In this document: positions 41,899 through 62,152 of the stretch, piece by piece
Layout: the number at the start of each line of letters is the position of its first letter
Position numbering within the stretch: position 1 is the stretch's first letter
From: Leptodontidium sp. MPI-SDFR-AT-0119
Taxonomy: Eukaryota; Ascomycota; Leotiomycetes; Helotiales; Leptodontidiaceae
Assembly: GCA_020726505.1 (NCBI GenBank)
Contig: JAHLEZ010000048.1
Location: 124,001 to 188,000, forward strand
Reading direction: 5' to 3'
Length of the DNA stretch: 64,000 bases
The notes under the pieces: model-generated
Databases searched by the model: none
What the model saw: only the letters and a program-made list of their open reading frames with translations
Told to the model about the DNA's origin: nothing
Made by a program: the position numbers and the translations under genes

Positions 41899-42209
41899 GA
41901 CCGACTTAATTAACTACTTTATATAACTAATTCTAGTCCGTTTGACTTGATTTTTTTATAGAAAGATGCGCCGTAATTGAAATTATAATTACTAAATAAG
42001 TGTATTAGGGTTAGGGCTAATTGATAAGGTGTTGTTTGGAGTTGAATATGGATTTTGAATGAATATTCTGTAGGTCTTGGCGCTACGGGATATCCCGTAG
42101 GGCATCGACAGGGGTGCGAATCGCGTCTGAATTCCCCTTCTAATACGTAAAAACGCGATTTATTTTACTTATATATATTATTTAATCTAGACCACGAACT
42201 ACGCCTACA

Positions 42210-43464
42210 ATGGCCAAATCTACGCCTTAAATCAAGTATAGAGGGTCTAAGAGAGGCAAGAAGAAGTCCTCTTTGGATGCTAGTATTGCTCGTATACGGA
42301 AGAAGCCCAAATATAAGACCCTTGTATATATGAGCTAGGAGGCTAGGATTCAAGTTGCCTTGGAAGTATATGAGAACCCCGACGACACTAATATTACTAG
42401 TCTATGTATTGCCGCCGGCGTCTTTAGTGGAGTTAGTTACTTTACTTTGAATCACCGTTATAAGAAGAGAGACAGTTTAAAGAATTTGGCTAAGAATGGC
42501 GGCTATAACAAGAAGTTGAATAAAGCTTAAGAGGCGTCTTTAATATAGTATATTAATATTGTTATTAAGAGAGGCTTTTCTATGAGATATAATATAATTG
42601 TTGCCGCTACAACTATAATATTAAGTCTCTTTATAAAAGTTTTCTAGCGAATTAGACATAATTAGGCCAAAAGATAGGTTAAAAGAATAGACGCCGCTGG
42701 CCGATATTATACTTTACAGACTACTCTAATAGACTAAAAGCGTAAAGATTATATAATAATTGGAGAGATCCCTAGTTGCTTTCAAAAGTTAGTTATAGTA
42801 ATAGCTAAATACTTAATACATTAGAAAGATATCTTTAATATAAACGAAATTAGCTTTCGTGTTAAGTGTATTAGTAATATAACGGTTATTACGTACAAGA
42901 ACATCCGAAAAGTACGTTTTCCCGCCTAAAAAGCGCTTATCCTAATAACTAAGTACGTATTAACTATTTTTAGGTTTATACCTGTGACCCTGCCGACCGC
43001 GAATCTATGTTAGTCATTAAGTGTATCTCTGTCGCTAGTTACGCTATTAATTATTATATTATTATGCCGGGGGCTGTCTACTTAGAGAAGATGTTTAATA
43101 ACAACTTACCTCTAGGCACGAAGATCTCTTGTAATAAAAAGGGGGTACTTAAGTAATGAGCTTGTATTAGAGTGGCTTAAACACTTTAATTAACAAACTA
43201 AAGGCCGCTAATAAGGCTAATGGCGTCTTTTAGTGTTTAATGGCTATAGGAGTCATATAACTTACGAGTTTATTTCTAAGTGTAAGTAATTAAAGATTAT
43301 ACCTTTTTATTTAATTACTCACTTAACACATGTTATATAATTACTAGATGTTGTATGTTTTTAAATAGAAAAGTATTAGTATGGACGAGTAATTAAAGAT
43401 AGAATTAAAGATAGTTGTAACACCTTTATTAAATATACCTTTCTTTAATGCCTTCACTAAATTA
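42210..43464 (+). pseudogene. pogo transposase, N-terminal and DDE core part, decayed
   Basis: A degraded frame from the ATG at 42210 shows an N-terminal DNA-binding region (ITSLCIAAGVFSGVSY, a helix-turn-helix pattern) and a CENP-B-like part. The DDE domain then follows, with the first catalytic block reading NINEISF where active relatives have NFDETGF, then DPADRESM, MPGAVYLEKMFNN and the SHITYEFISKC block. At least ten codons are TAA/TAG where the family has Gln or Trp. The frame is cut at 43464 by the AATTA target duplication of the inserted gypsy element. Confidence 0.8.
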
Positions 43465-43764
43465 TGTTACGGCTGGCTAAAGGTTGATACGGCGAGTTGA
43501 CTCAAGCTTTGTATTTGGACCTAAGGCTACGCTCAGAATCGAGAAGAAAAGACAAGGAGAAAAGGAGAGCTCTCTATAAGAGGGAGCTCGAGTATAAATA
43601 CATAAAGGAGCCTCCTAATAGGGCCTAGCGTAGTCGGGGGCTATTCACCCACATGTCGCAGGCTTGCTACTAAGTCTTCCTTATTAGGCTTAGCGCCATC
43701 GTATAGCCAGCGATACTACGAGCCCGTATTAGTTAGAATGCGAGGCGTATTGTAGGTCGTAACA
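43465..43764 (-). repeat. LTR of retrotransposon A (downstream LTR)
   Basis: It runs from TGTTACGGCTGGC to GGTCGTAACA in the given orientation, with TG...CA ends and inverted TGTTACG/CGTAACA termini. It matches 56330-56629 directly and both LTRs of element B in inverted orientation. Confidence 0.88.
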
Positions 43765-43778
43765 TTACCCCCCCCTCC

Positions 43779-46700
43779 TAAAAAACTGCGTTCGCGTAGT
43801 TGTAGTTATAACCGTGTCGTCCTCTAGGTCGTTATAGTCGTTAATACTGGCGTTATAAGCCTTTAGTTATTTTAAGAGAGCTCTTAGCGGCCCTTTAGCG
43901 TTAAGATACTTTAGGTGGAACTGTTTGACTATATACGGAGTTATTATAGTATCTAAGTATAAGTACTACTCTAAGTCTTTGTCGGCGCCTAGCTACTTAA
44001 TATAGTAGAATAGCTTATTCTATATGACCTTAAAGCCAAGGATGCCTTTAATTTCCCACTTATCTTACTTAAATAATAGCTAAATAAGTACCGGCGTAGC
44101 TCTAGCTTGTTTAGGTAGGGGATTGTTAATATACTTACGGAGCGAGTGCGAGTAAAAGACGGGATGGATTTGCTAGTCCTCTAGGAGCTTAACTCTCTAA
44201 CTCTCTCCTTCTTTAGCGAGTACCTTAGTTAGGCTATATTACTTGTCGGAGAGCTTTCTTGAAGGTCGGTCGATATTTTAGTTCTGAGTATCGACTAGTA
44301 CTAGGTCGTTAACGTCTTAATTAATAATACGTCGCTTACGGTTCGTTAGTCGTTTTATTTTCTCTTATTAATCTTTTAGGGACGACTATACGACTTTTAT
44401 AACCTCCTTTATTCGTAATACTACTTATAAAGCCTCTTTATAATTGAGTTTCTCTGTTACTGTAGTTAGAGGCTTTAGGTTAACTAGGTCTTAAAAAGTC
44501 CTTAGTTTAACGCCGTTAAGTAACTAAAAAGGGGATAAGCGGCTTAGGGACTCGTGTAATAACGTTAATTAAGCGATGTCTATAATTAGTAAGAGGTCGC
44601 TCTAATTATCTTAGTAGTAGTAATAAAAGGGACGAAGTCGTTGCTTATATATTAGTTCGTTACTTTCGTTTAGCCGTCGACGTTTAAGTTATACGCCGTC
44701 GTTAGCTTTACTTTAGTCCCAAGGATATAATAGTACTTTTTTTAAAAGGAGGAGACGAACTAAGGTCCTTAGTCTAAGATAATAAAGTCTAGTATACTAA
44801 AGTATTAAGTCTAATAGACAAAGAAGAGAATAGTTATGTCTTTAGCCGTAATTATATTATTATAAGGTATTAAGACTAATTTCTTAAATAAGCGGTTAAT
44901 AATAATTATAGTGAAATTATAACCGTGCTTATTTAGTAGTAACTTCGTAAAGTCTATTGTGAAGTATTAATACGGCTAAGTAAGGATTGACAGGGGGTAT
45001 AAGAAACTAAGAGTCTTATTTCTACAGGCCTTTTGTCGAGAGTAACTATAGTTTATTACGTATTAAGTTATATCTGTGGGGAGGCCGTTCTAGTGATATT
45101 TACGACTTAGTAATACTTTTATCTTTTTAATCCTTATATATATTACTAAAAGTTAAGAATATATATAGCGAATAAGTATTATACGAAGCTCCAGCGATTT
45201 TAAAGGCACTTTTAGGCGGCCTTAGAAAAGTAACTTATTGCTTATTAGCTCGTAATCTAACGACTACTCCCTAGCTTTTTATTAGAGAGGCTCTAACGAA
45301 GGCGAGGTCTTATTAGCTAGGAGTACTTAGTCGATAACGTCGTATTTTATAATATTATATACTACTATAAAGTTAAGGTCTAGCTCTTCCGCGGTAGGCG
45401 TCTCCGGGTTAATTAGTACTTCCGTATTCGACTCTGGCTCTGGCTCTAGCTCGTCACGTGTCTCAATATCGCGACTTGGGGTTATGGCGTTTATAAGTGC
45501 TAGGGGTATTGTTTCTACGACTTTAATATAGGCGTCTATAGGATCGACGGCGGAAAGTTAAAGGTCGCTAGCGACTCGTGGGTCAATCTTATTAGTAAGA
45601 ATTAGTTATTAATTACGAATAGCCCGCTTACGTGCCTCTATAGCTGTGAAGTCTTAATCCTGTCGAGACAAGGTATTAGTTAATATATTAGTCGTCTCAG
45701 TATAATATATAATCGTAAAGTAAAAGTCCGCAAAGAACTCAGCCTATTAAGCCTACTTAGCTATAAGGTTCTTAATAGTTATAAAATACTTTAGGGCTTA
45801 GTAGTTAATATAAATAAGGACATTTTTTTAAGTATTTAAGAGCTCTAAGTAATATTACTTAAATAACCGGAAAATCGCTAGTATTTCTTTATCGTGAATC
45901 GGATAGTTAAACTCGGGGTCTATTATAGTCTTCGAGAAGTATCTTACGAGGTAAAAGGTGTCGTCTTCTTAAAGTTAAGATAAAATCTTAGCGACGACTT
46001 TATTAGAAGAATTAGTCTCTAGTTATATCTATTTAGTAAGGTCGTAGTAGTAAAGAACCGGCGTAGATTAAAGGGCTTCCTAAAGAGTTTCTTAAGCGTC
46101 CTTATAGGCGCTATTAAATTTAAAAGGAACGTCTTTTTTAGTAAGTATTATAAGAGGTCGTATAATATAACTATAGTCCTTAATAAACTGGCGATAAAAG
46201 TTATAAAAGCTAAAATAACTTTATATACCTCGTAAATTATTAGTGTATTATTAGTCCTTAATTATACTAATCTTTTCTAAGTCTACTTTTATACTATTAA
46301 CTTTAATAATAAATCTTAAGAACTTAGTCTTTTGTACGTTAAACTTAGACTTTTTAATATTAGCCTAAAGTCCGTGTACTTATAATATTACTATATCCTT
46401 TTTAATATAGACCTCGTGTTCTTTAAGAGTAGACGAATATATAAAGATATTATTTATATATACTATGTAAAAGTCGTTAAAGTATTTTATGAGGATATTA
46501 TTAATAAAACACTAAAAAGTCGCCGGACTATTTATAAGGCTAAAGGGAAGGACCTTATACTTATACGTGTTATATTAAGTACGAAAAGTCATATAGTTTT
46601 CGCTCTCGGGGGACATATAAATGTGATAAAAGGCTTATTAAATATCGAGCTTTATAAAGACTTTTTCCTTATAGATGTGTGTTATTATCTTATTAATTAG

Positions 46701-49128
46701 TAGAATCAAGTACAGGTCCTTCTTTAATAGGGCATTTAACTTCTAGTAGTTAACGTATAGCCGGAAACTATTGTCGGCTTTTTTAGTAAAGAGAATAAGG
46801 GCCGTATATAGTACGCTAGAGGGCTTAATAAAACCTTTATATAAGTTGTTAATAATATATCGCTTAGTCTCTAATAGTTATTCTTTAGTTATACGCCGGA
46901 GAGGTTTAAAAAATAAGTCGTTCTCTTTAGTAAGTTTAATTTAGTAGTCTACGCTTTAGCGGTACTTTAGTAGCTCGTCGGAGGCTCGCCGGGAGAAGAG
47001 GGGGGTATACTTTTAATACTTTGCCGGGAGTTTCTTACTTACTAACTTATTATTTTGCGCGTACTTAGCCTTTAGGGCCTCCTTTAGGGTTAAGTCTCTA
47101 TTTATTAATACGAGTTTAATACTTAACTAGTCTAAGGCCTCTCGCCGGTAACGAGTTAACTCTTAGTTAATCTTATATATTAATATTATAAAGGTTTCTA
47201 CTTTACTTTTTTTAGATTTCTTAAGTTAGAGGTACGTCGTAAATATTATTATTATTAATATAAGGAAAATCTCTGTAGTAAGCGCCTTTAGCTAGTGATT
47301 TACTAAGGAGGCTTTATAGGCTCTCTTGTCTTTAAGTAATAATCCTAGATCACGGGATGTTAAGGGGTTTAATTACTTTTTTATAACTTATAGGCGCTCT
47401 TTGACTTCTCTAGTAAAGCTTAAGGGTCGAGTTAGCGAGACGTTAATAGTAAGTTAGACAGGGGCCTTTGTCTTAAAGGAATCGTTAAGCGCTACAAGCT
47501 TAGCTTATTTCTAGCGGTAGTTATTTATATTTATAAGGGTATCCCTTCGTTTTACGTTAAGTTAATAAGACTTAATGATTAACTTATTAGAATAATTAAT
47601 ATTAACGAAGACTCGCTAGTTAAAGTATAATTAAACGAGTATATTTAATAACTATTTTAGCCGATTGCGGTTCTTTATATACGACTACTTTAAGTCGTAA
47701 TACTCGAGGAACTTCTGATTAATTAAGACATTAATGTTACTTAAGTCAGTTATTAAGAAGAGGAAGTTAATTCGCCGGCGATTGATTGTTAAAGTAAGTA
47801 AGACGGCTGTGTTAATTAGCTTGTCTTTTTTACTATTATAGCTAGTTAAGACAATTAGTTAAAGAAGAAATATAAAAGAAATATCAAATTACTTAACGAG
47901 TCAGTATATAAAAGAGGTTTTAATAATATTAAAAATATTAACTCTATTATTAATATATATAAGTGTCTTAATAAAGAATCTATTTCTTTTTAGTTTAATA
48001 CTAATTAAGAATTGTCGTCCTTTAATAAGAGTATAGAAATTAAATATTAAGTCCTTTTATAAATTGTAACTTATATTAAAGTATAAGTCTTTACCACGGC
48101 CTAAGAGTTTTTTAATAGCTCGTTAGTCTTTAAATCTTCGCCGACGACTAACTTAGAAATTGACTTATTGAGAGCCTGATTTCTACGACGCTTAGGGCAG
48201 TTATTAACTTAATAGTCAGTCTTATTATAATAGAAACAGGTGTTAGAAGAGACGTCCCTAGGTATAAGAGGAGGTATAAGGGACTTAAGTCGGCGTAAGA
48301 CAGGCGAAGGAGAGGGCGTACACTAGCGGATATTTGACGACTGTCTTAAAGTCGGTAGTCTTTATATATAAGTAATAAGGGTAAGTAAAGTCGAACGCTA
48401 GCTGTCCTTTTTTAAGATGTCACGCGAGTTATTAGTACTAGTGTTATTAAAGGAGACTCGAGGGGCTTCGTAGATAATAGTAATAGTATGTTTATTAACT
48501 CGTTTAATAGCGATATTTTATAGCTCGCGATTTAAGACAGTTAAGAACTTATTAAGAGTTATATAATCTCCGGCGAATTTATACTTTTTAGTTTAAATGT
48601 CGTACTTAAGTTTATTTAAGACTTTCTTATATACGTCGTCGAATTAATAATTAAGTGAGATTTTTTTAATAGCCGCGTATGTCGTGAATTTTATATAGAA
48701 CTTATTATAAGTTATATTACTTATTTATAATTAGTTATACTTAAGCTTAACGGCTTATACTTAGTTATAATTAAAGAAACGCTAGTTTAAAGCCTTTAAG
48801 ACGTCGGCGGCTTTATTAAAGTCTCTAGTAAAGTCAGGGTTTATTTATTAAAGAATAATAGTCTTAGCCTTTCCCTTTATATACTTAAAGTAAGCGTAAA
48901 CTTACGATTCGCTAGTAAGGAAGTTACTTAAGTATCTTTAAATAAAGAGCTTTATATTTATCTTTTAGGCGTCGTATTTAATTTCGCCCTTATAATTACT
49001 AAAGGAGTTATAAGGGTACTTGACTTTATTAAGCTTAACGGCAGGGATAACGGGGTTTAGCTTAGGGAGGTAATAGTCGGCGATAGGCTAGAGGTCCGCC
49101 GTAAGAGCACGTATAAATTAGTTAAAAG
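43779..49128 (-). pseudogene. gag (3' part) and pol of retrotransposon A, decayed
   Basis: Read on the minus strand this is the counterpart of 49,960-55,400 of element B: the rest of gag with its zinc knuckle near 48,230, then protease, reverse transcriptase (active-site region near 46,440) , RNase H and integrase regions. Stops are present throughout. A 94-codon plus-strand frame at 46416-46700 is only the antisense of the reverse transcriptase and should not be annotated. Confidence 0.7.
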
Positions 49129-49430
49129 TGTTACGACCTACGATGCGCCTCGTATTCTAACCGACATAGGCTCGTAGCATCGCTGGCTATACGACGGCGC
49201 TAAGCCTAATAAGGAAGACTAGGAGGCGAGCCTGCGATATATTGACGTGAATGGCACTCGACTACGCTAGGCCCTATTAGGAGGGCCCTTTATATATTTA
49301 TACTCGAGCTCCCCCTTATAAAAAGTTCTCCTTTCCTCTTTGTCTTTTCTTCTTGATTTTAAGCGTAGCCTTAAGCCTAAATATAAAGCTTAAGTTAATT
49401 TACTGTATTAACCTCTAGTTAGCCGTAATA
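49129..49430 (+). repeat. Left LTR of retrotransposon B
   Basis: It starts TGTTACGACCTACGATGCGCC-like sequence and ends CCGTAATA, where the undecayed end would be CGTAACA. It is the inverse of the LTRs of element A. Confidence 0.85.
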
Positions 49431-49689
49431 TAAGAAAAGACTAGTACCCTTTCGTTATAAAGCGTTATATCTCACTTAGTCTTGCGCCTTGTCGACTTGC
49501 CCTTATAGTAAGTTAATAATAAGCCTTAATACCTTAGCCTATTTAATAAATAAGTACCTCTCTACTTTAATAATAGACTATCTTAGAGAAAGTTAAATAT
49601 TCTCTCGCGATTAACTTACTTTGCCGTAACTTGACGCGCGCCCCGTTTCGAACGTATATCTAATTAATATATTAATTAATAACTTTAAA

Positions 49690-52600
49690 CACTTCTCTAC
49701 TTTACTTTATTATTATTACCGACTTCTCCCCCTCGTCGGCGAAGCTCTAGAGAAAGGAGCGCCCTTATACGGCTAGGCTTTACTAACACCCCTATCCCTT
49801 TAGTCGAGACTCTCTCGGAGGAGCTAGAAAGCTTTAACGGATTCGATTCAGACTTAAAGGGCAAGCCCTAGCGTTTCTTCGACGCATTACTAGAGCCTAC
49901 TAATATAAAGGGCCTTACCCCTGCTTAATAAGCTAAAGTAAATTAGTTAATTAAGGACTCCGTTAGCTCTACTGTCGCCGCCGCCGTCACATAAGCCCTC
50001 ACTTAATATATTATTAATAACTCTCGCTAAGAGACTAGTACTCCCTCTCTTTTTATTTGATCTGTACGTACTCTTACGGCGGACCTCTAGCTTACCGCCA
50101 ATTATTACCTCTTTAAGCTAAACCCCGCTATCCCTGCCGTCGAGCCTAATAAGGTCAAGTACCCTTATACTCTCTTTAGCGACTATAAGGGCGAAATTAA
50201 ATACGACGCTTAAAAGATAAATATAAAACTCTTTATTTAAAAGTACTTAAGTAACTTCCTTACTAGCGAATCGTAAGTTTATACTTACTTTAAGTATATA
50301 AAGGGAGAGGCTAAGACTATTATCCTTTAACGAATAAACCTTAACTTCGCTAGAGACTTTAATAAAGCCGCCGACGTCTTAAAAGCCCTAGACTAGCGTT
50401 TCTTTAACTATAATTAAGTATAAGCCGTTAAGCTTAAGTATAATTAACTATAAATAAGTAATATAACTTATAACGAGTTTTATATAAAGTTTACAATATA
50501 CGCGACTACTAAAAAAATCTCACTTAATTACTAGTTTAACGACGTATACGAGAAAGTCTTAAATAAGCTTAAGTACGACATTTAGACTAAGAAGTATAAA
50601 TTCGCCGGAGATTATATAGCTTTTAATAAGTTCTTAGCCGTCTTAAATCGCGAGTTACAGAATATTATTACTAAACGAGTTAATAAACGTGTTATTACTA
50701 TTGTCCGCGAAGCCCCTCGAGTCTCCTTTAATAATATAAGTACTAACGACTCGCGCGGCATCTTATAAAAAGACAATTAACGTTTGACTTCACTTACCCT
50801 TACTACTTACGTATAAAGACTATTGACTTTAAGACAGTCGTTAGATGCCCGCTAATATACGCCTTCTCTTTCGCCTGTCTTACGCCGACTTAAGTCCCCT
50901 ATACCTCCTCTTATACTTAAGGACGTCTTTTCCGACACTTGTTTTTATTGTAGTAAGACCGGCTATTAGGCTAGCGACTGCCTTAAGCGCCGTAGGGACT
51001 AGGCTCTTAATAAGTCGATTTCCTAGTTAGTCGTCGGCGAGAATCTAGAGACTAACGAGCTCTCAAAAAACTCTTAGGCCGTGGTAAAGACTTATACTTT
51101 AGTATAGGCTATAACTTGTGGAAGGACTTAGTATTTAATTTCTGTGCTTTTATTAAAAGACGACAATTCTTAATTAATATTAAACTAAAAAGGAATAAAT
51201 TCTTTATTAAGACACTTATATATATTAATAGTAGAGTTAATATTTTTAGTGTTATTAAAACCTCTTTTATATACTAACTCGTTAAGTAATTTAATATCTC
51301 TTTTATATCCCTCCTTTAGTTAATTATTTTAACTAGTTATAATAATAAGAAAGGTAAGTTAATTAATACGGCTGTCTTACTTATTTTAACGATCGACCGC
51401 CGGCGAATTAACTTCCCTTTTCTAGTAATTGACTTAAGAAACATTAACGTCTTAATTAGTCGGAAGTTCCTCGAGTATTACGACTTAAAGTAATTATATA
51501 TAAAGAACTATAATTGGCTAGAATAATTATTAAATATACTCGTTTAATTATACTTTGACTAGCGAGTTTTTGTTAATATTAACCGTTTTAATAAACTAAT
51601 CGTTAAGTCTTACTAGTTTAACACGGAATAAAGGGATGCCCTTATAGATATAAATAACTATTACTAGAGATAAGTTAGGCTTACGGCGCTCGACGATTCC
51701 CTTAAGACAAAGGCCCCCGTCTGACTTACTATTAGTGTCTCGTTAACTCGACCCTCGAGCTTTACTAAAGAAGTCTAAGAGCGCCTACGGGTTATAAAAA
51801 AGTAATTAAACCCTTTAATATCTCGTAATTTAAGATTATTACTTAAGAACAAGAGAACTTATAAAGCTTCTCTAGTAAATCACTAAATAAAGGCACTTAC
51901 TACGAAAATCTTCTTTATATTAGTAATAGTGATGTTTACGACGTACTTTCGACTTAAGAAGGCTAAGAAAAATAAGGTATAAACCTTCGTGGTATTAGTA
52001 CTTAAAATTAACTAAGAACTAACTCGTCGCCAGCGAAAGGCCTTAGATTAACTAAGTGTCGAACTCGTATTAATAAATAGAGACTTAACTTTAAAAGAGG
52101 CCTTAAAGGCTAAGTACGCGTAAAATAATAAACTAATAAATAAGAAGCTCCCGATAAAGTACTAAGAGTATATTCCTCTCTTCTCCCGGCGAGCCTCTAA
52201 CGAGTTACTAACGTATCGCTAAAGTGTAAACTACTAAATCGAGCTTACTAAAGAAAACGACTTATCTTTTGAGCCTTTCTGGCGTATAATTAAAGAATAA
52301 CTATTAGAGACTAAATAATATATTATTAATAACTTATATAAAGGCTTTATTAAGCCCTCTAGTATACCTTACACGGCCCTTATTCTCTTCGCCAAGAAAG
52401 CCGATAGTAGTCTTAGGTTATATATTAACTATTAAAAGTTAAATGCCTTGTTAAAGAAGGACCCGTACTTAATCCCTCTAATTAATGAGATAATAGCTCG
52501 TATTTATAAGGTAAAGGTCTTTATAAAGTTTAATATTTAATAAGCTTTCTACCGTATTCGTATGTCTTTTAAGAGCGAAGACTATATGACCTTCCGTACT

Positions 52601-55398
52601 TAATATAACACGTATAAGTATAAGGTCCTTCTCTTTAGCTTTATTAATAGTCCGGCGACTTTTTAGCGATTTGTTAATAATATCTTTATAAAACACCTCG
52701 ACGACTTTTACGTGGCTTATATAAATAATATCTTTATATATTTGTTTACTCTAAAGGAATATAAGGTCTACGTTAAGAAGGTTATAATAATATTATAAGT
52801 ATATAAACTTTAGGCTAATATTAAGAAGTCTGAGTTTAGTGTATAAAAGACTAAGTTCTTAGGATTCGTTATTAAAGTCAATAGCGTAAAAGTAGACCTT
52901 AAGAAGATTAGTGTAATTAAGGACTAATAATACGCTAATAATATATAAGGTATATAAAGTTACTTTAGCTTTTATAACTTTTATTATTGGTTTATTAAAG
53001 ACTATAGTCGTATTATACGTCCTCTTATAATACTTACTAAAAAGGACGTTCCTTTCGTCTTCGACAACGCTTATAAAAATATATAAGAGACTCTCTAGGA
53101 AGCCCTCTAATCTACGCCGGTTCTTTACTACTACGACCTTACTAAGTAAACGCGACTAAAAACTAATTCCTCGAATAGAGTCGTCGCTAAGGTTTTATTT
53201 TAACTTTAAAAGGATAACACTTTTTACCTTATAAGATACTTTTCTAAGATTATAATAAACCCCGAGCTTAATTACTTAATCTATGACAAAGAGATATTAG
53301 CGATTTTCTGGTTATTTAAATAATATCACCTAGAGCTCTTAAGTACTTAAAAAAATGTCTTTATTTATATAGACTACTAAGCCCTAAAGTACTTTATGAC
53401 TACTAAGGACCTTATAGCTAGATAGGCTCGATAGGCCGAGTTCTTTACGGATTTTTATTTCACGATTATATATTATACTAGGACGACTAATACTTTAGTT
53501 AATACTTTATCTTAATAGGATTAAGACCTCACGGCTATAAAGGCACATAAGCGGGCTATCTGTAGTTAATAGCTGATTCCGACTAACAAAATTAACCCAC
53601 GAGTCGCTAGCGACTTTTAACTCTCTGCCGTCGATCTTATAAAAGCTTATATTAAGGTCGTAGAGACGATACCCTTGGCACTTATAGACGTTATAATCCC
53701 AAATCGCGATACTAAGACACGTGACGAGCCAAAGCCAGAGCCAGAGTCGAATACGAGAGTACTAATTAACTTAGAGACGCTTACTACAGAGGAACTAGAC
53801 CTTAACTCTATAATAATATATAATATCGCGGAATACGACGTTATTAATTAAGTGCTCTTAGCTAATAAGTCGTCTCCTTCGCTAGAGCTTCTCTAATAAA
53901 AAGCTAAGGAATAATCGCTAGATTACGAGCTAATAAACGACAAGTTACTTTTTTAAGGCCGCCTAGAAGTACCCTTAGAGTCGCCGGAGCTTCACACGAC
54001 ACTTATTCGTTATATATATTCCTAACCTTTAGTAACACACGCGAGGATCGAAAAGATAAAGGTATTATTAAGTCACAAATATCACTAGAACGGCCTTACC
54101 ACGGACATAGCTCGATATATAGTAAACTGTAGTTACTCTCGACAAAAAGCCCGTAAAGATAAGACCCCTAGCTTCTTATACCCCTTATTAATCCTTACTT
54201 GGCCGTATTAATACCTTATAATAAACTTTACGAAGTTATTATTAAACAAGCACGGTTATAACTTCGCTATAGTTCTCGTTAACCGCTTGTCTAAAAAACC
54301 GATCTCGATACTTTATAATAATATAATTACTATTAAAGGCATAACTATTTTCTTCCTTGTTTATTAGACTTGACACTTCGGTATATTAGACTCTATTGTC
54401 TTAGACTAAGGACTTTAGTTTGTCTCCTCCTTTTAGAAGGAGTATTATTATATCCTCGGGACTAAGGTAAAACTAACGATAGCGTATAACCTGAACGTTA
54501 ACGGTTAAATAGAAGTAACGAACTAATATATTAAGTAGCGGCTCCGCCCCTTTTATTACTATTACTAAGACAATTAAAGCGACCTCTTACTAATTATAGA
54601 CATTACTTAATTAACGTTACCGCACGAGTCCTTAAGCCGCCTATCTTCTTTTTAATTACTTAATAGCGTTAAGCCGAGGACTTCTTAAGACTTAATTAAC
54701 TTAGAGCCTCCGGCTACGGTAATAGAGAAACTTAATCGCGAGGAGGCTCTCTAAGTAATATTACGAATAAAGGAGGTTATAGAAGTTATATAGTCGTCCC
54801 TTAAAGATTAACAAGAGAAAATAAAACGACTAGCGAATTATAGGTAACGCGCTATTAACTAAGACGTTAGCGACTTAGTACTAGTCGACACTCGGAACTA
54901 GAACGTTAACTGACTTTTAAGGAAGTTGTTTAATAAGTAATACGGCCTTATTAAGGTAATTGCTAGGGAAGGAGAGAGCTAAAGAGTTAAGTTATTAAAG
55001 GACTAGTTAATTTACTTTATCTTTTACTCGCACTCGCTTCGTAAGTACGTTAATAACCCCCTGCCGGGATAAGCTAAAACTACGCCGGCACTTATTTAAC
55101 TATTACTTAAGTAAGATAAGTGGGAAATTAAAGGTATCTTTAGTTTTAAGGTTATACGAAACAAGCTATTTTATTGTATTAAGTGACTAGGCGTCGACGA
55201 GGACTTAGAGTAGTACTTATGCTCAGATGTTATAATAGCTCCGTATATAATTAAGCGGTTTTACTTAGAGTATCTTAACGCTAAGGGCCCGCCGAGAGCT
55301 CTCCTAAAGTGGCTAGAGGCTTATAACGCTAGTATTAACGACTATAACGACTTAAAGGACGATATAGTTATAACTACAACTGCGCGGACGTAGTTTTT
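49690..55398 (+). pseudogene. gag-pol of retrotransposon B, decayed
   Basis: Only fragments can be read. A zinc knuckle at about 50,936-50,990 reads CFYCSKTGY then a stop and ASDC, so the zinc-binding His is now Tyr. The reverse transcriptase active site near 52,705-52,735 reads AYINNIFIY, with both catalytic Asp positions now Asn. RNase H and integrase regions follow to about 55,390. The predominance of C-to-T and G-to-A effects (Gln codons to stops, His to Tyr, Asp to Asn) is what RIP produces. No intact protein remains. Confidence 0.75.
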
Positions 55399-55414
55399 TA
55401 AGAGGGGGGGGTAA

Positions 55415-55716
55415 TATTATAACTTACGATACGCCTCGTATTTTAACTGACATAGGCTCGTAATATCACTGGTTATGCGACGGCGCTAAGCTTAATAGGG
55501 AAGACTAAGAGGCGAGCCTGCGACATGTTAACGTGAATGGCACTCGACTACGTTAAGCCTTATTAGGAGGGCCCTTCATATATTTATACTCGAGCTCCCC
55601 CTTATAGAGAGCTCTCCTTTCCTCCTTGTCTTTTCTTCTCGATTCTGAGCGTAGCCTTAGGCCCAAATACAAAGCTTGAGTCAACTCGCCGTATCAACCT
55701 CTAGCTAGCCGTAACA
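55415..55716 (+). repeat. Right LTR of retrotransposon B
   Basis: It is a 302-bp copy of 49129-49430, with its first bases changed from TGTTACG to TATTATA and its end intact as CCGTAACA. Confidence 0.83.
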
Positions 55717-55721
55717 AAAAG

Positions 55722-56329
55722 GGGAGGAAGCGCTAGTCTTTTAGTGAAGGTTATTAATAGTATATTAAGTGAGGGCTTATATGACAGCAGCGGCGACAAT
55801 AAAGTTAATAGAGTCCTTGATTAGCTGATCTACCCTAACTTATTGAGCGGGGGTAAGGCCTTTTATATTAGTAGGCTCTGGCGATGCGTCGAAGAAACGC
55901 TAGGGCTTGTCCTTTGAGTCTAAGTCGAATCCGTTAAAGCTTTTTAGCTCTTCCGAGAGAGTCTTAACTGAAGGGATAGGGGTGTTAGTAAAGCTTAGCC
56001 GTATAAGGGCGCTCCTTTCTCTAGAGCTTTGCCGACGCGGGGGAGAGGTCAGTAGTAGTAGTAAGGTAAGGTAAGGAGGTGTTTAAGGTTGTTAATTAGA
56101 CATACGTTCGAAACAGGGGCGCGCGTCAAGTTATAGTAAGGTAAGTTAACCGCGGGAGAATATCTAGCTTTCTCTAAGACAGTTTATTACGAGGGCAGAG
56201 AGGTACTTATTTATCGAATAGGCTAAAGTGTTAAGGCTCGTTATTGACTTACTATAAGGGCAAGTCGACAAGGCGTAAGACTAAGTAAGATATAACGCTT
56301 CATAGCGAAGGGGTATTAGTCTTTTCTTA
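55722..56329 (-). pseudogene. 5' leader and first part of gag of retrotransposon A
   Basis: On the minus strand this matches 49,431-50,000 of element B in sequence and order, including the GC-rich block around GACGCGCGCC. It is separated from the rest of gag by the insertion of B. Confidence 0.72.
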
Positions 56330-56629
56330 TATTACGGCTAGTTAAAAGTTAATACGGCGAGTTAACTTAAGCTTTATATTTAGACTTAAGGCTACGCTTA
56401 GAATCGAGAAGAAAAGACAAGGAGAAAAGGAGAGCTCTTTATAAGAGGGAGCTCGAGTATAAATATATAAAGGAGCCTCTTAATGGGGCCTAGCGTAGTC
56501 GGGGGCCATTCATCCACATGTCGTAGGCTCGCTACTAAGTCTTCCCTATCAGGCTTAGCGCCGTCGCATAGCTAGCGATGCTACGAGCCCGTGTCGGTTA
56601 GAATGCGAGGCGCATCGTAGGTCGTAACA
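56330..56629 (-). repeat. LTR of retrotransposon A (upstream LTR)
   Basis: It matches 43465-43764 directly. Its first base pair TG has become TA (TATTACGG), and its other end is intact as GTCGTAACA. Confidence 0.87.
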
Positions 56630-56634
56630 AATTA

Positions 56635-57999
56635 GAGCCAAAACCTTTAAGAAAGAGACTATTTAGTCAGCCTTTAGACGTACCGGTATATAACTATTAA
56701 ACCCGGACGTTATTATTAAAGCTTTTAAGCTTACCTAGGATACTTAAATAGGCGATAAAAACACCGGTGGACGGGTGTATAATTATACTCTAAATGATTT
56801 ATCTGTTGTAATTTATGTTCTTGTATTTAACGAAGCTGTATTACGTTGGGTACTAGCTAGTAATCGCTTTTAGGAGGCCGAAATTGCGTTAGACAAAGAA
56901 TACGACTATATTCTGTGGATTTATAATGATAGAGCTTTTAACGATGATCTAGAAGACGATATTTAGCTTTTATAGCTCCCACGTGACGGAAATATCGATA
57001 TTATAGACGATTTGATAGCTTTATTAGTAAGCTCTTATATTAACGAGTTACTTAATATTTAAGATTTAATAGAAATAGTAACTTTAGAGTAACCTTCGTA
57101 ACTTAGAGGTGTGGAAGACTACGGTGATTACGGCCTTAGAAAGACGACGGAAAATCCACGTTAGTACACGAAAACACTATTCTTTGATATATTATACGGA
57201 GCTAAAGGAATTAACGTACACGCCTAATTCCTAGAAACCTACGAAGATATATTGTCGTCTCCGTTAAAGCGACTCTTTAATAAGAAGTTCTAAAAAGGTA
57301 ATATAATTAATGCGATATTAGGCGACGCTGCGCGCTAAGAGCTCACTTTAATCGTGTCAAATAATACTTGGGGCAGTAAATCCCTTGTGCTTAATGACGA
57401 AGACGGTGCCAAGAGAGTTAAACCACGCGGCGGGGGCTGTGTAATCTCCTCTGGCGAAGGGCTGCGAATTATCGGCGACAAGAACGAATTTGCCTAGGAG
57501 TCTAAACTTACGAAGCTCTGTAGAGAGGCTAATATTACTGGAAATATATTGAAGATAGAGGAAGAGAAGGTTACTAGAGCTTTAGCTCGACAGTAAAAGA
57601 AAGAGGAGAAGGAGACTGTAAAGGCTTAAAAAAGAATAGAAAAGACACGCATTCAGGAGGAGAAAGCTTAGGCTAAAATACAACAAAAGCTCGACAAAGC
57701 TGTAAAGAAACAGGCTTTAATTGATATTAGGAAGAAGCCTAGGGGTCGGAAACCAAATACAATTAAAGAGGAAGAGGCTATATAATAAGAGCCTATGGTT
57801 ATGGCCGCATCTCAAAGACCAATTTGCACTAAGAGACTAACACAAAAGGCGATTGAAATACTTAGCGACGACGAGTAAGATAGTAGCAGTAATATTAAGA
57901 GTCTTATAGAGTCAGATTCGTCCGCTGATTCCGATTCCGACGTTAATTTGACTAATAATAGTGGTGGTGGGCCTGTAGATTACGATGATTACGATTAAG
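56635..57999 (+). pseudogene. pogo transposase, C-terminal part, decayed
   Basis: It continues the transposase frame after the retrotransposon nest: KTFKKETI, then a stop, SAFRRTGIYLLNPDVII, the end of the DDE_1 domain. A long charged tail rich in Lys/Glu (coiled-coil-like, about 57,530-57,780) follows, then a final acidic Ser/Asp-rich end stopping near 57,999. It again contains several in-frame stops. Confidence 0.75.
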
Positions 58000-58207
58000 G
58001 AGTGTCTAAGTTGGTAGTCGGATGTGGGATTACATAAGCGAGTGCATTCGAAACCCCCTTTACTTCAATTAATTACAATATATAACATAAATCAAATGAC
58101 GTCATCTAAGTTGTGATTAGTGTAGAATTTTATTCCGGATCTAATAGTCCATCCCCGAAGTTAATTGTATTAGTAGTAAAAAAGTTATTCCTTGATTAAG
58201 ACGGTAT

Positions 58208-59250: not shown

Positions 59251-61257
59251 ATGTCGGAAGAACGTCGAGGGCGTAGACGTCTGTCTAGTTCCGGAAGGAG
59301 ATCCGAAACTAGGAAAGGACCTGTAGTCCTACCCGCGCTGCCAACTCTGAGTGGCTTTTCGGAAGCGGCTCATCAGCAGTTCTCCCCCCCTCAAAAGCAT
59401 AAAACCCAAGCAATAAAAGGTCCACGCAGAGCGACAGTGGGTGATTGTTACATTAAACGTTGATTCGTATTTTACTGATCTCTATAGCCAACTCACAAGC
59501 CGAGCGATAAAGATGTAAGAAAACAAATCAAGGTCTTCTCGAACAAAGACGACTGGACGGAAGTTACCGCTACCTTTGTCGATGATCTTGTCGAAGCATG
59601 GATATCCAAAGACGTTTTCGAGCATCTGGAACTTGATGCTTTCCCAGGAACGCCAGGGGATCCAGAATGGGGGGTTCTGGGAATGAAATCGGTTCCGTTG
59701 GGGGGCACAACTGACCTCCAGTGGTTTCCGAAGGATTGCAAGAAGGTAAAAGATACGAGATGTCGCATTGTTGAGAGCAAAGATTTTGAAGTCTACCTTC
59801 AATCACACTTGCTGCCATCGAATGGTTCATCGGGCTCGAAGTCCAGCAGTGTTGAGATTCCCTCAAGTCCAAAGTTGATTCCAGAACCGCCCGCGTCTCC
59901 ACTAAGGAAGCTCGCCATGGTTGACAGCCCTCCAATTCAAAAGGATCCTCTTGATACTGACACTGCGACTCTAAAGGAGGATATTGACAGAGTCTCTGGC
60001 ATTGTACCAAAAGGGTCTTTCGATGGCCTTCCGGAGAATATCAGCGAGACATCAGTGGAGTAGGTGCATCATCCCCTTTATTGATCGAGTCGCGTGCTAA
60101 GCTACCAAGAGCCAAACATGCAGACAATTGGATGGCTTATCTCAAACACTCTTTCCACAATCGTTTTGAGAAAAAGCCAGAGATTGTGCACGATCCTGTG
60201 AAAATCGCAGGTCAGTCATTTCCCGGCGGTTTGCGGTAAAGCCTTGGGGGATCATGGCTCTTCGAATCCTAACGAGACAACAACTTTTGAGCTGCTCTCT
60301 TTATTTCCCAGATCGTGAAAGGATTGTGCAGCTAATAGGTCCGATACAGTCTTAGATACCGGCCTTGATATAACAGAAAACTCCATAAAAGGTGCTTTAA
60401 GGCAAAAAAGAGTGAAACTTGTGAAGAGTTTTATCCCAGGCGATCCAAGCATAAGCGATGAGTACGGTCATGGCACTCATGTTGCATCGCTTCTATTGAA
60501 AGTCGCACCGCATGCCCAAGTATTCGTATTAAAGATTGCAAAGACGGAGGAGATCTTGTCTACAGAAATTATAGCCGAAGTAAGTCGATGAGCATGAACT
60601 CATCTGATTCTAGGAGCAACATCTAATCCACGCTTGAAGGCGATCAACCATGCTGCCAATGAGCTCCGGGTAGACATCATCACCATGTCATTCGGCCTCG
60701 ACAAGGAAAACGCCGTAGTCCAAGCCGCAATACGCAATGCCTTCTCCAAGAACATTCTCATGTTTGCCGCAGCCTCCAACAGCGGCGGAAACCTCGAGGT
60801 CAAATACCCCGCCAGAAAGGACGAGGTGACCTGCGTGTACGCAACTGATGGGTCCGGAAACCCATTCGACAAAAATCCCAACACCATGACGAGCTCAAGC
60901 TTTCACTTCGCATCGCTTGGAGTAGGGGTGAAGTCTTCTTGGCCGAGGGACTTGCAGAATCCGCCTCTGAAAGCGGGAGAGCCGTCGGAACGAAGACAGA
61001 CGGGAACCTCGTTTGCAACGCCCATTGTGGCTGGTATTGCGGCATGTATTATTGAGTTTGCGATCGTGCATAACCTCTCGGAAGATCTTTTAGGGGTGTT
61101 GAAGACGCGACAGGGGATGCAGAAGACGTTTTCTAAATTTATGGTGGATGAGACACCACGATCGGGGCTGCATTATATTCACCCTTGGAAGATGTTTACG
61201 AATGATCGGGATGATGAGGTAATTGTGCATATGATGGCGGACATTCTGAAATGCTAG
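59251..61257 (+). CDS. Intracellular subtilisin-like serine protease (peptidase S8), HET-Q2-like by context
   Basis: Five exons give an uninterrupted 574-aa frame: 59251-59436, 59488-60059, 60110-60210, 60332-60579 and 60640-61257. The first ~280 residues are basic, then Pro/Ser-rich and acidic, with no signal peptide. The S8 domain follows with a complete catalytic set: Asp in VLDTG (about residue 295), His in GHGTHVASL (about 333), Asn in AAASNSGG (about 416) and Ser in GTSFATP (about 493). Lack of a secretion signal and a long N-terminal region separate it from secreted fungal subtilases and resemble the cytosolic S8 proteases found beside fungal gasdermin genes. The next gene converges on it, 110 bp away. 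Its probable role, by inference, is to cleave and activate that neighbour. Confidence 0.85.
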
Positions 61258-61366
61258 CGATGAAGTCGGTTCTGTTGGTTCAACTGAGTCCTTGTATTGA
61301 TGGGTATCTGGAGAATATTCTGTAAGTTTATAGGAGGAAATATTTTTAGAGGCGCACACTTCAACC

Positions 61367-62152
61367 TTACTCTATTGACTGAGATGGTGGAACCACAACG
61401 CACTTGCATTCCGTGTTTCCGTCCTCATCAAACGCCGTGACTGATTTGCTTCCAACAATTTCATGTGCAGCCACTTCCCAACCTCCGTCGATGTGTGCGG
61501 TCAGAGTGATCCGCAAAGAACCAAAATCCGTATCCCGCTCATCGTCGTCGCCCAACATCTTCCCCATAACTTTGGACTTCTCCTGCTTCTCTCTCCCCTG
61601 ATCTTGAATTTCACCAGCAGTGATCCTGACCAGCCGATATCCAATGACAAAGTCCGAGGTGCCTCCCAAGGGTGCATGCTCTTGTGGAGTTTGTTGGTTG
61701 GGTCTTTGCGCCAAGCCCCGTCCAATCTTCAGACCCGTAATCATGAATACTGGCAGTTCGTACTGGGACCCCTCGAGGTATCCACGCACACTTTCTTTGT
61801 TTACCGCTTCGTGGATATAATCTTGTGTAGGGGCAAAGTCGAGGGTTTCCACATCCTGAATTGAAAAGCGGCTTGTAACTTCCGAATCGAGGCCGGTACC
61901 ATTCGTACCATCCAATCTCAGGCTCGAGAGAAATCGGGCTGTTACGCTGACTTGGCCATTTTGCAGGGATTCGGTAATGTCCCAGTCGCGTTTGTGACTC
62001 GTGTGCACATGCGAAGAAATTGCGACAACATCACCAGGATTCAGAATCTCTTCTGGCTCGAGGGGATCAGCAATGATGCTTCCGAGTCTGATCGGGCCGT
62101 CTGGTGGGAGATCAAAGTTGGTCAAAACAAAGTATGTCTTCGAAGCTGCCAT
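61367..62152 (-). CDS. Gasdermin-like cell-death effector (inferred)
   Basis: A single exon encodes 261 aa, starting MAASKTYFVLTNFDLPPDG at 62152; upstream codons in the same frame (to 62440) are hydrophobic leader noise. There is no signal peptide or obvious membrane helix. The sequence alternates short hydrophobic strands, contains DGPIRLGSIIADPLEPEEIL near the start and GTSDFVIGYRLVRIT in the middle, and ends with about 30 less conserved residues. Fungal gasdermins are of this size, lack the large C-terminal repressor of animal gasdermins and are activated by removal of a short C-terminal piece. The combination of size, fold-like pattern and a convergent S8 protease gene is the reason for the call. 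The family assignment rests on my recollection of these proteins and on context, not on a search. Confidence 0.55.
   Translation of the reverse strand: MAASKTYFVLTNFDLPPDGPIRLGSIIADPLEPEEILNPGDVVAISSHVHTSHKRDWDITESLQNGQVSVTARFLSSLRLDGTNGTGLDSEVTSRFSIQDVETLDFAPTQDYIHEAVNKESVRGYLEGSQYELPVFMITGLKIGRGLAQRPNQQTPQEHAPLGGTSDFVIGYRLVRITAGEIQDQGREKQEKSKVMGKMLGDDDERDTDFGSLRITLTAHIDGGWEVAAHEIVGSKSVTAFDEDGNTECKCVVVPPSQSIE

What the first reader, a model, noticed from the sequence alone, without database searches (positions are those of the whole stretch)
59251..62152. Convergent subtilisin-like protease and gasdermin-like gene: a candidate protease-activated cell-death pair
Sequence: an intact 574-aa S8 protease with a full catalytic set and no signal peptide converges, with 110 bp between stop codons, on an intact 261-aa single-exon protein. 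Knowledge: fungal gasdermins (RCD-1 of Neurospora, HET-Q1 of Podospora) are small pore-forming proteins, and HET-Q1 is activated by the S8 protease HET-Q2 encoded next to it. Inference: this locus is a similar pair, with the protease cutting the short C-terminal segment of its neighbour.
Basis: partly seen in the sequence, partly recalled or inferred. Interest (0 to 1): 0.9.

Follow-up and report, generated by a model that had tools for sequence, protein, structure and literature searches.

The report
Protease-paired gasdermin missing a pore hairpin
Two neighbouring fungal genes encode a subtilisin-family protease and a relative of the cell-killing gasdermins that lacks one of the two hairpins gasdermins push through membranes, so the protein likely cannot punch holes by itself and would instead restrain or assist the fungus's other gasdermins.

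Summary
The 261-aa protein is gasdermin-derived: its family profile matches RCD-1 (1.6e-20) and HET-Q1 (1.7e-10), and its model's best solved matches are RCD-1 chains. The protease has an intact S8 triad; the better model is 568 aa, not 574. S8/gasdermin pairs are a published class (PMC10197012, passages); in this genome 7 of 8 gasdermin hits lie within 3 kb of an S8 hit.

What is new is in the gasdermin. Where the second transmembrane hairpin belongs it has 20 residues. Its clade has 9-30 (8 of 8 sequences); 13 of 13 long-form relatives have 39-53. The stump varies freely (26% identity) while core (81-92%) and C-terminal tail (81%) are conserved in six complete clade members. A long-form relative modelled from the same sequences shows both hairpins; the window protein does not. 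The clade is one branch (98/98); 3 of 8 relatives show the protease beside it.

I read it as a protease-released gasdermin that likely cannot build the usual pore alone and likely modulates full-length gasdermins. Function is untested; decay is a live rival.

The parts
59251..61257 (+). S8 (subtilisin-family) protease gene, 568 aa, five exons: 59251-59436, 59488-60059, 60110-60210, 60350-60579, 60640-61257
   Evidence: Splice model, supported by the annotated orthologue P0017; Pfam PF00082 3.2e-26
59497..59832 (+). N-terminal region of the protease (about residues 66-177), shared with orthologues, without Pfam or significant PDB match; likely the sensor part (inference)
   Evidence: not found elsewhere in the own genome
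60355..61011 (+). Stretch holding the catalytic residues D289 (60355-60357), H327 (60469-60471), N410 (60778-60780), S487 (61009-61011)
61258..61366 (.). 109 bases between the two stop codons (tail-to-tail genes)
61367..62152 (-). Gasdermin-derived gene, single exon, 261 aa
   Evidence: profile match to RCD-1 and HET-Q1; Foldseek and VIA
61853..61981 (-). First hairpin region (residues 58-100), 43 residues, of normal length
61655..61714 (-). Place of the second transmembrane hairpin, reduced to 20 residues (147-166)
61370..61621 (-). C-terminal tail (residues 178-261); residues 196-256 are 81% identical in the clade; likely inhibitory (inference)
61523..61525 (-). F210, candidate cleavage position (inference by analogy with HET-Q1 F238); would release 51 residues, 5.4 kDa
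   Evidence: HET-Q1 data from PMC10989679 (passages)

Best explanation
The locus is a convergent pair of an S8 protease and a gasdermin-derived protein that lacks the second transmembrane hairpin, in which the protease would cut off the conserved C-terminal tail and release a protein that likely cannot build a gasdermin pore alone and likely acts by joining, and thereby restraining or tuning, full-length gasdermins. Shown by sequence: gasdermin core, intact S8 triad, a hairpin loss shared by the aligned clade, a conserved tail, linkage kept in three relatives. Inferred: cleavage by the neighbour, perhaps near F210; loss of pore formation; any effect on other gasdermins. Six own-genome gasdermin loci with a measured long second-hairpin segment, and two or three more read by eye, could be the partners.
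For: Gasdermin ancestry. S8 fold and triad; orthologue P0017 against solved subtilisins 4.7e-20. Hairpin loss: 20 residues between anchors G146 and D167; clade 9-30 (8 of 8 aligned), long forms 39-53 (13 of 13); RCD-1-2 and HET-Q1 pore chains 48 by the pattern. The 8jyy RCD-1-2 crystal chain, whose deposited sequence lacks a stretch in each hairpin, still has 35, so the window protein is shorter there than that chain. AF2 from the same 15 sequences reordered: P0010 has long strands 148-163 and 182-196, the window protein a loop with pLDDT under 50. Foldseek: the window model's best hit is soluble 8jyy (5.2e-8) and its 14 hits at 0.001 or better are all RCD-1 chains; P0010's best hit is the RCD-1 pore 8jyz (1.9e-10) and its 17 such hits include GSDME, GSDMD, Trichoplax and bacterial assemblies. 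Retention: core 81-92% and tail 81% identical against 26% in the stump, six sequences. Clade one branch, 98/98. In 9 of the 10 own-genome S8 loci most similar to the window protease a gasdermin-like ORF lies beside it; none was found at the 11th and 12th.
Against: No functional data. The restraining role has no direct evidence; it rests on lost pore parts plus retained core, tail and protease. The window model is of low confidence (mean pLDDT 57.2), so the case rests on segment length. VIA-align does not separate soluble from pore RCD-1: the window model scores 14.5 (rmsd 4.4, 145 aligned) with 8jyy and 13.5 (4.0, 167) with the pore 8jyz, and P0010 ties at 14.4 with both. The first hairpin is still 43 residues long and 66% identical in the clade, so some membrane activity may remain. 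In Oculimacula both gene models look damaged or mis-built (P0008 lacks the first hairpin, P0019 lacks the GTS motif), and the Cadophora sp. DSE1049 model P0009 leaves the frame, which favours decay in some lineages. For 5 of 8 relatives no protease on the same contig was listed (best 120 of 653 hits shown), among them P0002 (1.47-Mb contig) and P0009 (221-kb contig). F210 lies in a poorly aligned acidic stretch, so its absence in long forms depends on the alignment.
Confidence: 0.48

Rival explanations
1. Canonical killer pair: the protease cuts the tail and the released protein still forms lethal pores, using the first hairpin alone or an unusual assembly.
For: Conserved core and tail, first hairpin of normal length; active-looking protease; the published behaviour of HET-Q1/HET-Q2 (PMC10989679, passages; PMC12881547, passages and one section).
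Against: Gasdermin pores use two hairpins, four strands, per subunit (PMC12547243 and PMC11952106, passages); the second is absent from the eight clade sequences aligned and from the model.
Confidence: 0.22
2. A decaying pair: the gasdermin lost its killing function with the hairpin and both genes are now drifting.
For: Odd gene models in Oculimacula (P0008, P0019) and DSE1049 (P0009); a second short-form gasdermin on C67 has a broken frame; the locus lies next to a RIP-mutated island.
Against: Core and tail are 81-92% identical in six sequences while the stump is 26%; window and C. gregata protease and gasdermin frames are intact with the catalytic motifs kept.
Confidence: 0.17
3. A decoy or sensor: the gasdermin-like protein is a substrate or membrane anchor that holds the protease, and the protease acts on something else.
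For: The pore part is reduced while the pairing with the protease is kept in three relatives; the protease has its own clade-specific N-terminal region.
Against: No direct evidence; the tail, the part cut in HET-Q1, is among the best conserved parts.
Confidence: 0.08

Closest known systems
HET-Q1 / HET-Q2 (Podospora anserina)
   Same: Small gasdermin (278 aa) with short C-terminal tail and an S8 protease partner; about 5 kDa (40 residues) removed after F238 (PMC10989679, passages). HET-Q1 profile match 1.7e-10.
   Different: het-Q1 and het-Q2 are idiomorphs, alternatives at one locus (PMC12881547, section read); here both genes sit side by side in one genome. HET-Q1 keeps the second hairpin segment (48 residues by the pattern). 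HET-Q2 has 388 aa, this protease 568.
RCD-1-1 / RCD-1-2 (Neurospora crassa)
   Same: Closest solved fold and sequence; shows that two different fungal gasdermins can co-assemble (PMC11760362, passages; PMC12881547, section read).
   Different: RCD-1 keeps both hairpins, has no long tail and is not activated by a protease (PMC12881547 and PMC12547243, passages).
Other gasdermin/S8 (Q2L) pairs of fungi
   Same: Same two-gene class; about 63% of some 1,900 fungal gasdermins lie with an S8 gene (PMC10197012, passages).
   Different: In this genome 5 of the 7 S8 partners of the gasdermins have DUF7580 just upstream on the same strand; the window protease has a clade-specific region instead, and its gasdermin lacks the second hairpin.
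Pejvakin (animal gasdermin family)
   Same: A gasdermin that lost pore formation but is said to keep membrane binding and insertion (PMC8742441, passages).
   Different: Pejvakin lost its repressor domain; the window protein keeps tail and protease and lost a hairpin. Animal, not fungal.

Membership tests
Fungal gasdermin (RCD-1/HET-Q1 family), by descent | Sequence homology of the N-terminal domain to RCD-1 and HET-Q1 | tested here: met
   Profile E 1.6e-20, 7.9e-20 and 1.7e-10; single sequence 1.6e-4
Fungal gasdermin (RCD-1/HET-Q1 family), by descent | Gasdermin fold | tested here: met
Pore-forming gasdermin | Two transmembrane beta-hairpins per subunit | tested here: not met
   Second segment 20 residues against 39-53 in long forms; no such strands in the model. 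So not filed as a pore-forming gasdermin
Pore-forming gasdermin | Forms pores and kills cells | not testable with these tools
   Needs protein or cell assays
Pore-forming gasdermin | Inhibitory C-terminal tail removed by a protease | tested here: inconclusive
   A conserved tail is present; inhibition and cleavage not testable
Q2L gasdermin-linked S8 protease | S8 domain with Asp, His, Ser triad | tested here: met
   PF00082 3.2e-26; D289, H327, S487 and N410
Q2L gasdermin-linked S8 protease | Gene next to a fungal gasdermin gene | tested here: met
   109 bp apart; kept in 3 of 8 relatives
Q2L gasdermin-linked S8 protease | Closer to other gasdermin-linked S8 proteases than to unlinked ones | tested here: met
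   9 of the 10 best other S8 loci of the own genome lie beside a gasdermin-like ORF
Q2L gasdermin-linked S8 protease | Sensor region beside the protease domain | tested here: inconclusive
   About 110 aa shared with orthologues, without Pfam match and best PDB match 0.2
Q2L gasdermin-linked S8 protease | Direct sequence similarity to HET-Q2 | not tested
   HET-Q2 sequence was not held in any tool used
het-Q1/het-Q2 allorecognition system | The two genes are idiomorphs, alternatives at one locus | tested here: not met
   Both genes lie together in this genome
het-Q1/het-Q2 allorecognition system | Allelic polymorphism between strains | not testable with these tools
   One genome only

The most novel reading that the evidence does not exclude
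Fungi keep a protease-licensed gasdermin that has thrown away half of its membrane-piercing machinery and works as a brake on, or a regulatory subunit of, pores made by its full-length relatives: a fungal counterpart of pejvakin in which the safety catch and its protease were kept and the barrel strands were lost, and which arose more than once.
Probability: 0.4. Interest if true: 0.78.

Novelty: new variant of a known kind. Interest (0 to 1): 0.56.

Why it matters
Protease/gasdermin gene pairs are taken to be killer units. A conserved pair whose gasdermin lacks a hairpin separates protease control from pore formation and gives a direct test of whether fungal gasdermins have non-lytic or regulatory jobs, as pejvakin suggests for animals. 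It is also a natural counterpart of the RCD-1-2 crystal chain that lacks hairpin stretches, useful for finding which step (membrane binding, assembly, insertion) needs which part. It warns that counting gasdermin genes in fungal genomes over-counts killers unless the hairpins are checked.

Tried and rejected
Chance pairing: rejected. Unrelated fold of the 261-aa protein: rejected. Hairpin hidden in an intron, or an assembly error: rejected, since the frame is continuous from 62152 to 61370 and the clade shares the short form. CHAT protease neighbours: 16 matches, none on C43 or C25. The C25 gasdermin: no S8 match on its contig; ORFs around it were listed but not identified. Loss of the basic lipid-binding patch as a second defect: a trend only (Mann-Whitney p 0.011 on related sequences; long forms L014 at -4 and L013 at -2 overlap the clade), so not claimed. 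Identity of the protease's N-terminal region: the region search returned P0017 alone; it also missed P0018 and P0019, which share the region in the alignment, so it is no proof of absence elsewhere; no Pfam match; best PDB match 0.2. A resemblance to retropepsin-like domains is recalled and untested. Pfam finds no family in 5 of 5 gasdermin relatives scanned, nor in the window protein.

Literature: no held paper has both 'gasdermin' and 'Cadophora' or both 'fGSDM' and 'hairpin'. The six with 'fungal gasdermin' and 'hairpin' were seen as listing and abstract starts, three of them also as passages; nothing that I saw reports a fungal gasdermin lacking a hairpin. Searches were seen as listings only. 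The key primary paper (Clave 2022, PMC8851545) is not held, so mention there cannot be excluded.

Rows left out: P0009 (model leaves the frame) from all alignments and counts; L010, L012, L014 from A1; L012 because its frame is broken; P0007 and P0008 from the identity figures because they lack parts. The pattern stopped too early for P0010, P0011 and RCD-1-1 and missed P0013; the relatives were recounted by alignment, RCD-1-1 was not recounted by a call.

Full report
Where and what. The window is part of a 77-Mb fungal genome (G000:C43:124001-188000). The closest named relatives of both proteins are from Cadophora and Oculimacula, so I take it as a Cadophora-like fungus (inference). The two genes of the finding are present and intact. 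The gasdermin gene is one open frame of 261 codons, 62152-61370, minus strand, stop to 61367. The protease gene runs from 59251 to 61257 on the plus strand; 109 bases separate the stop codons.

Correction of the protease model. A start at 60350 removes six residues and gives VKIAVLDTG around the catalytic aspartate; the annotated Cadophora gregata orthologue P0017 aligns there without a gap. The 568-aa protein has one Pfam domain, Peptidase_S8 (residues 283-502, 3.2e-26), and D289, H327, N410 and S487.

The pairing is a known kind. Reviews report about 1,900 fungal gasdermins, about 80% clustered with a protease gene and about 60-63% with an S8 protease (PMC10197012, passages; PMC10989679, passages). 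The own genome agrees: a protein search found 8 gasdermin loci, and 7 of the 8 lie within 3 kb of one of 47 merged S8 loci, five of the seven convergently as here. Six further S8 loci were fetched and scanned; gasdermin-like ORFs turned up at three of the six. These three were found because they lie near S8 genes, so they are not independent evidence of linkage. The window's catalytic domain is most similar to gasdermin-linked S8 proteases: nine of the ten best other loci lie beside a gasdermin-like ORF (the exception is C69:1.51 Mb), and none was found at the two next loci fetched (C1:2.77 Mb, C11:0.87 Mb).

The pair is kept in relatives. Among the eight relatives P0002-P0009, three have the orthologous protease on what appears to be the same contig: C. 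gregata (ONS95_008899 and 008900), Oculimacula yallundae (VTL71DRAFT_13051 and 13052) and an unnamed contig of 13,211 bases (P0004/P0020). For the other five none was among the 120 hits listed; two of those have long contigs (1.47 Mb, 221 kb), so real absence, or a gene model outside the searched length range, is possible.

The new point: the second transmembrane hairpin is gone. Published gasdermin pores use two hairpins, four strands, per subunit (PMC12547243, passages; PMC11952106, passages). The second lies between the strand ending GLKIGRG and the strand beginning DFVIGYRL. There the window protein has 20 residues. By alignment the eight clade members (window, P0002-P0008) have 20, 19, 19, 19, 9, 24, 30 and 28; the 13 other sequences (seven database relatives, six own-genome paralogues) have 39-53. 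RCD-1-2 and HET-Q1 chains have 48, and the RCD-1-2 crystal chain 8jyy, whose deposited sequence lacks a stretch in each hairpin, has 35. P0010, a relative with a long segment, modelled from the same 15 sequences reordered (mean pLDDT 64.5), shows strands 49-67/83-106 and 148-163/182-196, that is, two hairpins; the window model shows a loop with pLDDT under 50 there. Foldseek ranks the RCD-1 pore first for P0010 and the soluble RCD-1-2 crystal first for the window model. VIA-align does not make that distinction within RCD-1 (P0010 ties at 14.4 with pore and crystal; window 14.5 crystal, 13.5 pore), but other gasdermin pores score higher with P0010, for example the GSDMA3 pore 8.5 against 5.4 and the Vitiosangium pore 9.4 against 5.7.

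Loss with retention. In six complete clade members mean pairwise identity, gaps counted as differences, is 26% in the stump, 81, 82 and 92% in three core parts, 66% in the first hairpin, 46% in the linker after the core and 81% in the tail. The clade is a single branch (98/98 on core columns without hairpins; 99/99 with three more paralogues and fewer columns). A second short form exists in this genome: the gasdermin on C67 has 26 residues in the same place, but its frame is broken. By its N-terminal part it falls outside the clade, so shortening probably happened at least twice.

The protease also departs from its neighbours. DUF7580 (PF24476) lies just upstream of the S8 hit on the same strand in 5 of the 7 pairs (C2, C5, C56, C67, C69), presumably in the same gene. 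No DUF7580 match lies on C43 or C68. The window protease carries instead a region of about 110 aa shared with its orthologues, not found elsewhere in the genome, without Pfam match and with a best PDB match of 0.2. The region search returned only P0017 and missed P0018 and P0019, which have the region, so wider relatives are not excluded.

How it most likely works. By analogy with HET-Q1, which loses about 5 kDa after F238 (PMC10989679, passages), the protease would remove a C-terminal fragment. F210, present in 8 of 8 clade members and, in this alignment of a variable acidic stretch, in none of the 13 others, would give 51 residues and 5.4 kDa. Without the second hairpin the released domain likely cannot close a barrel alone. 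Since RCD-1 shows that two different fungal gasdermins can co-assemble (PMC11760362, passages; PMC12881547, section read), I consider co-assembly with a long-form gasdermin, with a restraining or tuning effect, the most likely role. Cleavage, loss of pores and this role are inferences. The rivals are an unconventional but still lethal pore, decay, and a decoy.

Against my reading. Oculimacula's two gene models look damaged or mis-built, and the DSE1049 gasdermin model leaves the frame. The first hairpin is kept. The helix-pair charge trend is weak. The primary paper on fungal gasdermins and proteases was not held, so hairpin-less forms may have been seen there.

Verdict. Observation confirmed; interpretation partly supported; the pairing is known, and the hairpin-less, protease-coupled gasdermin is a new variant of a known kind.

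Noticed in passing
window 42001-58000: A 16-kb AT-rich island (GC 0.30-0.40) with a strong RIP signature (composite index 1.02-1.70 in 8 of 8 two-kb bins; the 24 other bins lie between -0.92 and -0.11) ends about 1.2 kb before the protease start.
   Followed up: partly
L012 (G000:C67:150500-160000): A second gasdermin with a short second-hairpin segment (26 residues), frame broken by a stop, beside an S8 hit with DUF7580 upstream.
   Followed up: partly
L017, L018, L020: Three more gasdermin-like loci beside S8 genes that the single-sequence search missed; in L017 and L018 the gasdermin is split over several ORFs.
   Followed up: partly
L015 (G000:C25:469000-478500): The only one of the eight gasdermin loci with no S8 or CHAT match on its contig; perhaps an orphan or a gene with another kind of activator.
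   Followed up: partly
window 59497-59832: Protease N-terminal region without identified relatives outside the orthologues; a resemblance to retropepsin-like domains is recalled only and untested.
   Followed up: partly
P0008 and P0019 (Oculimacula yallundae): The gasdermin model lacks the whole first hairpin and the protease model lacks the GTS serine motif: either both genes are damaged there or the gene models are wrong.
   Followed up: no
P0009 (Cadophora sp. DSE1049): Gasdermin model of 162 aa, 90% identical over 42% of the query, then out of frame.
   Followed up: no
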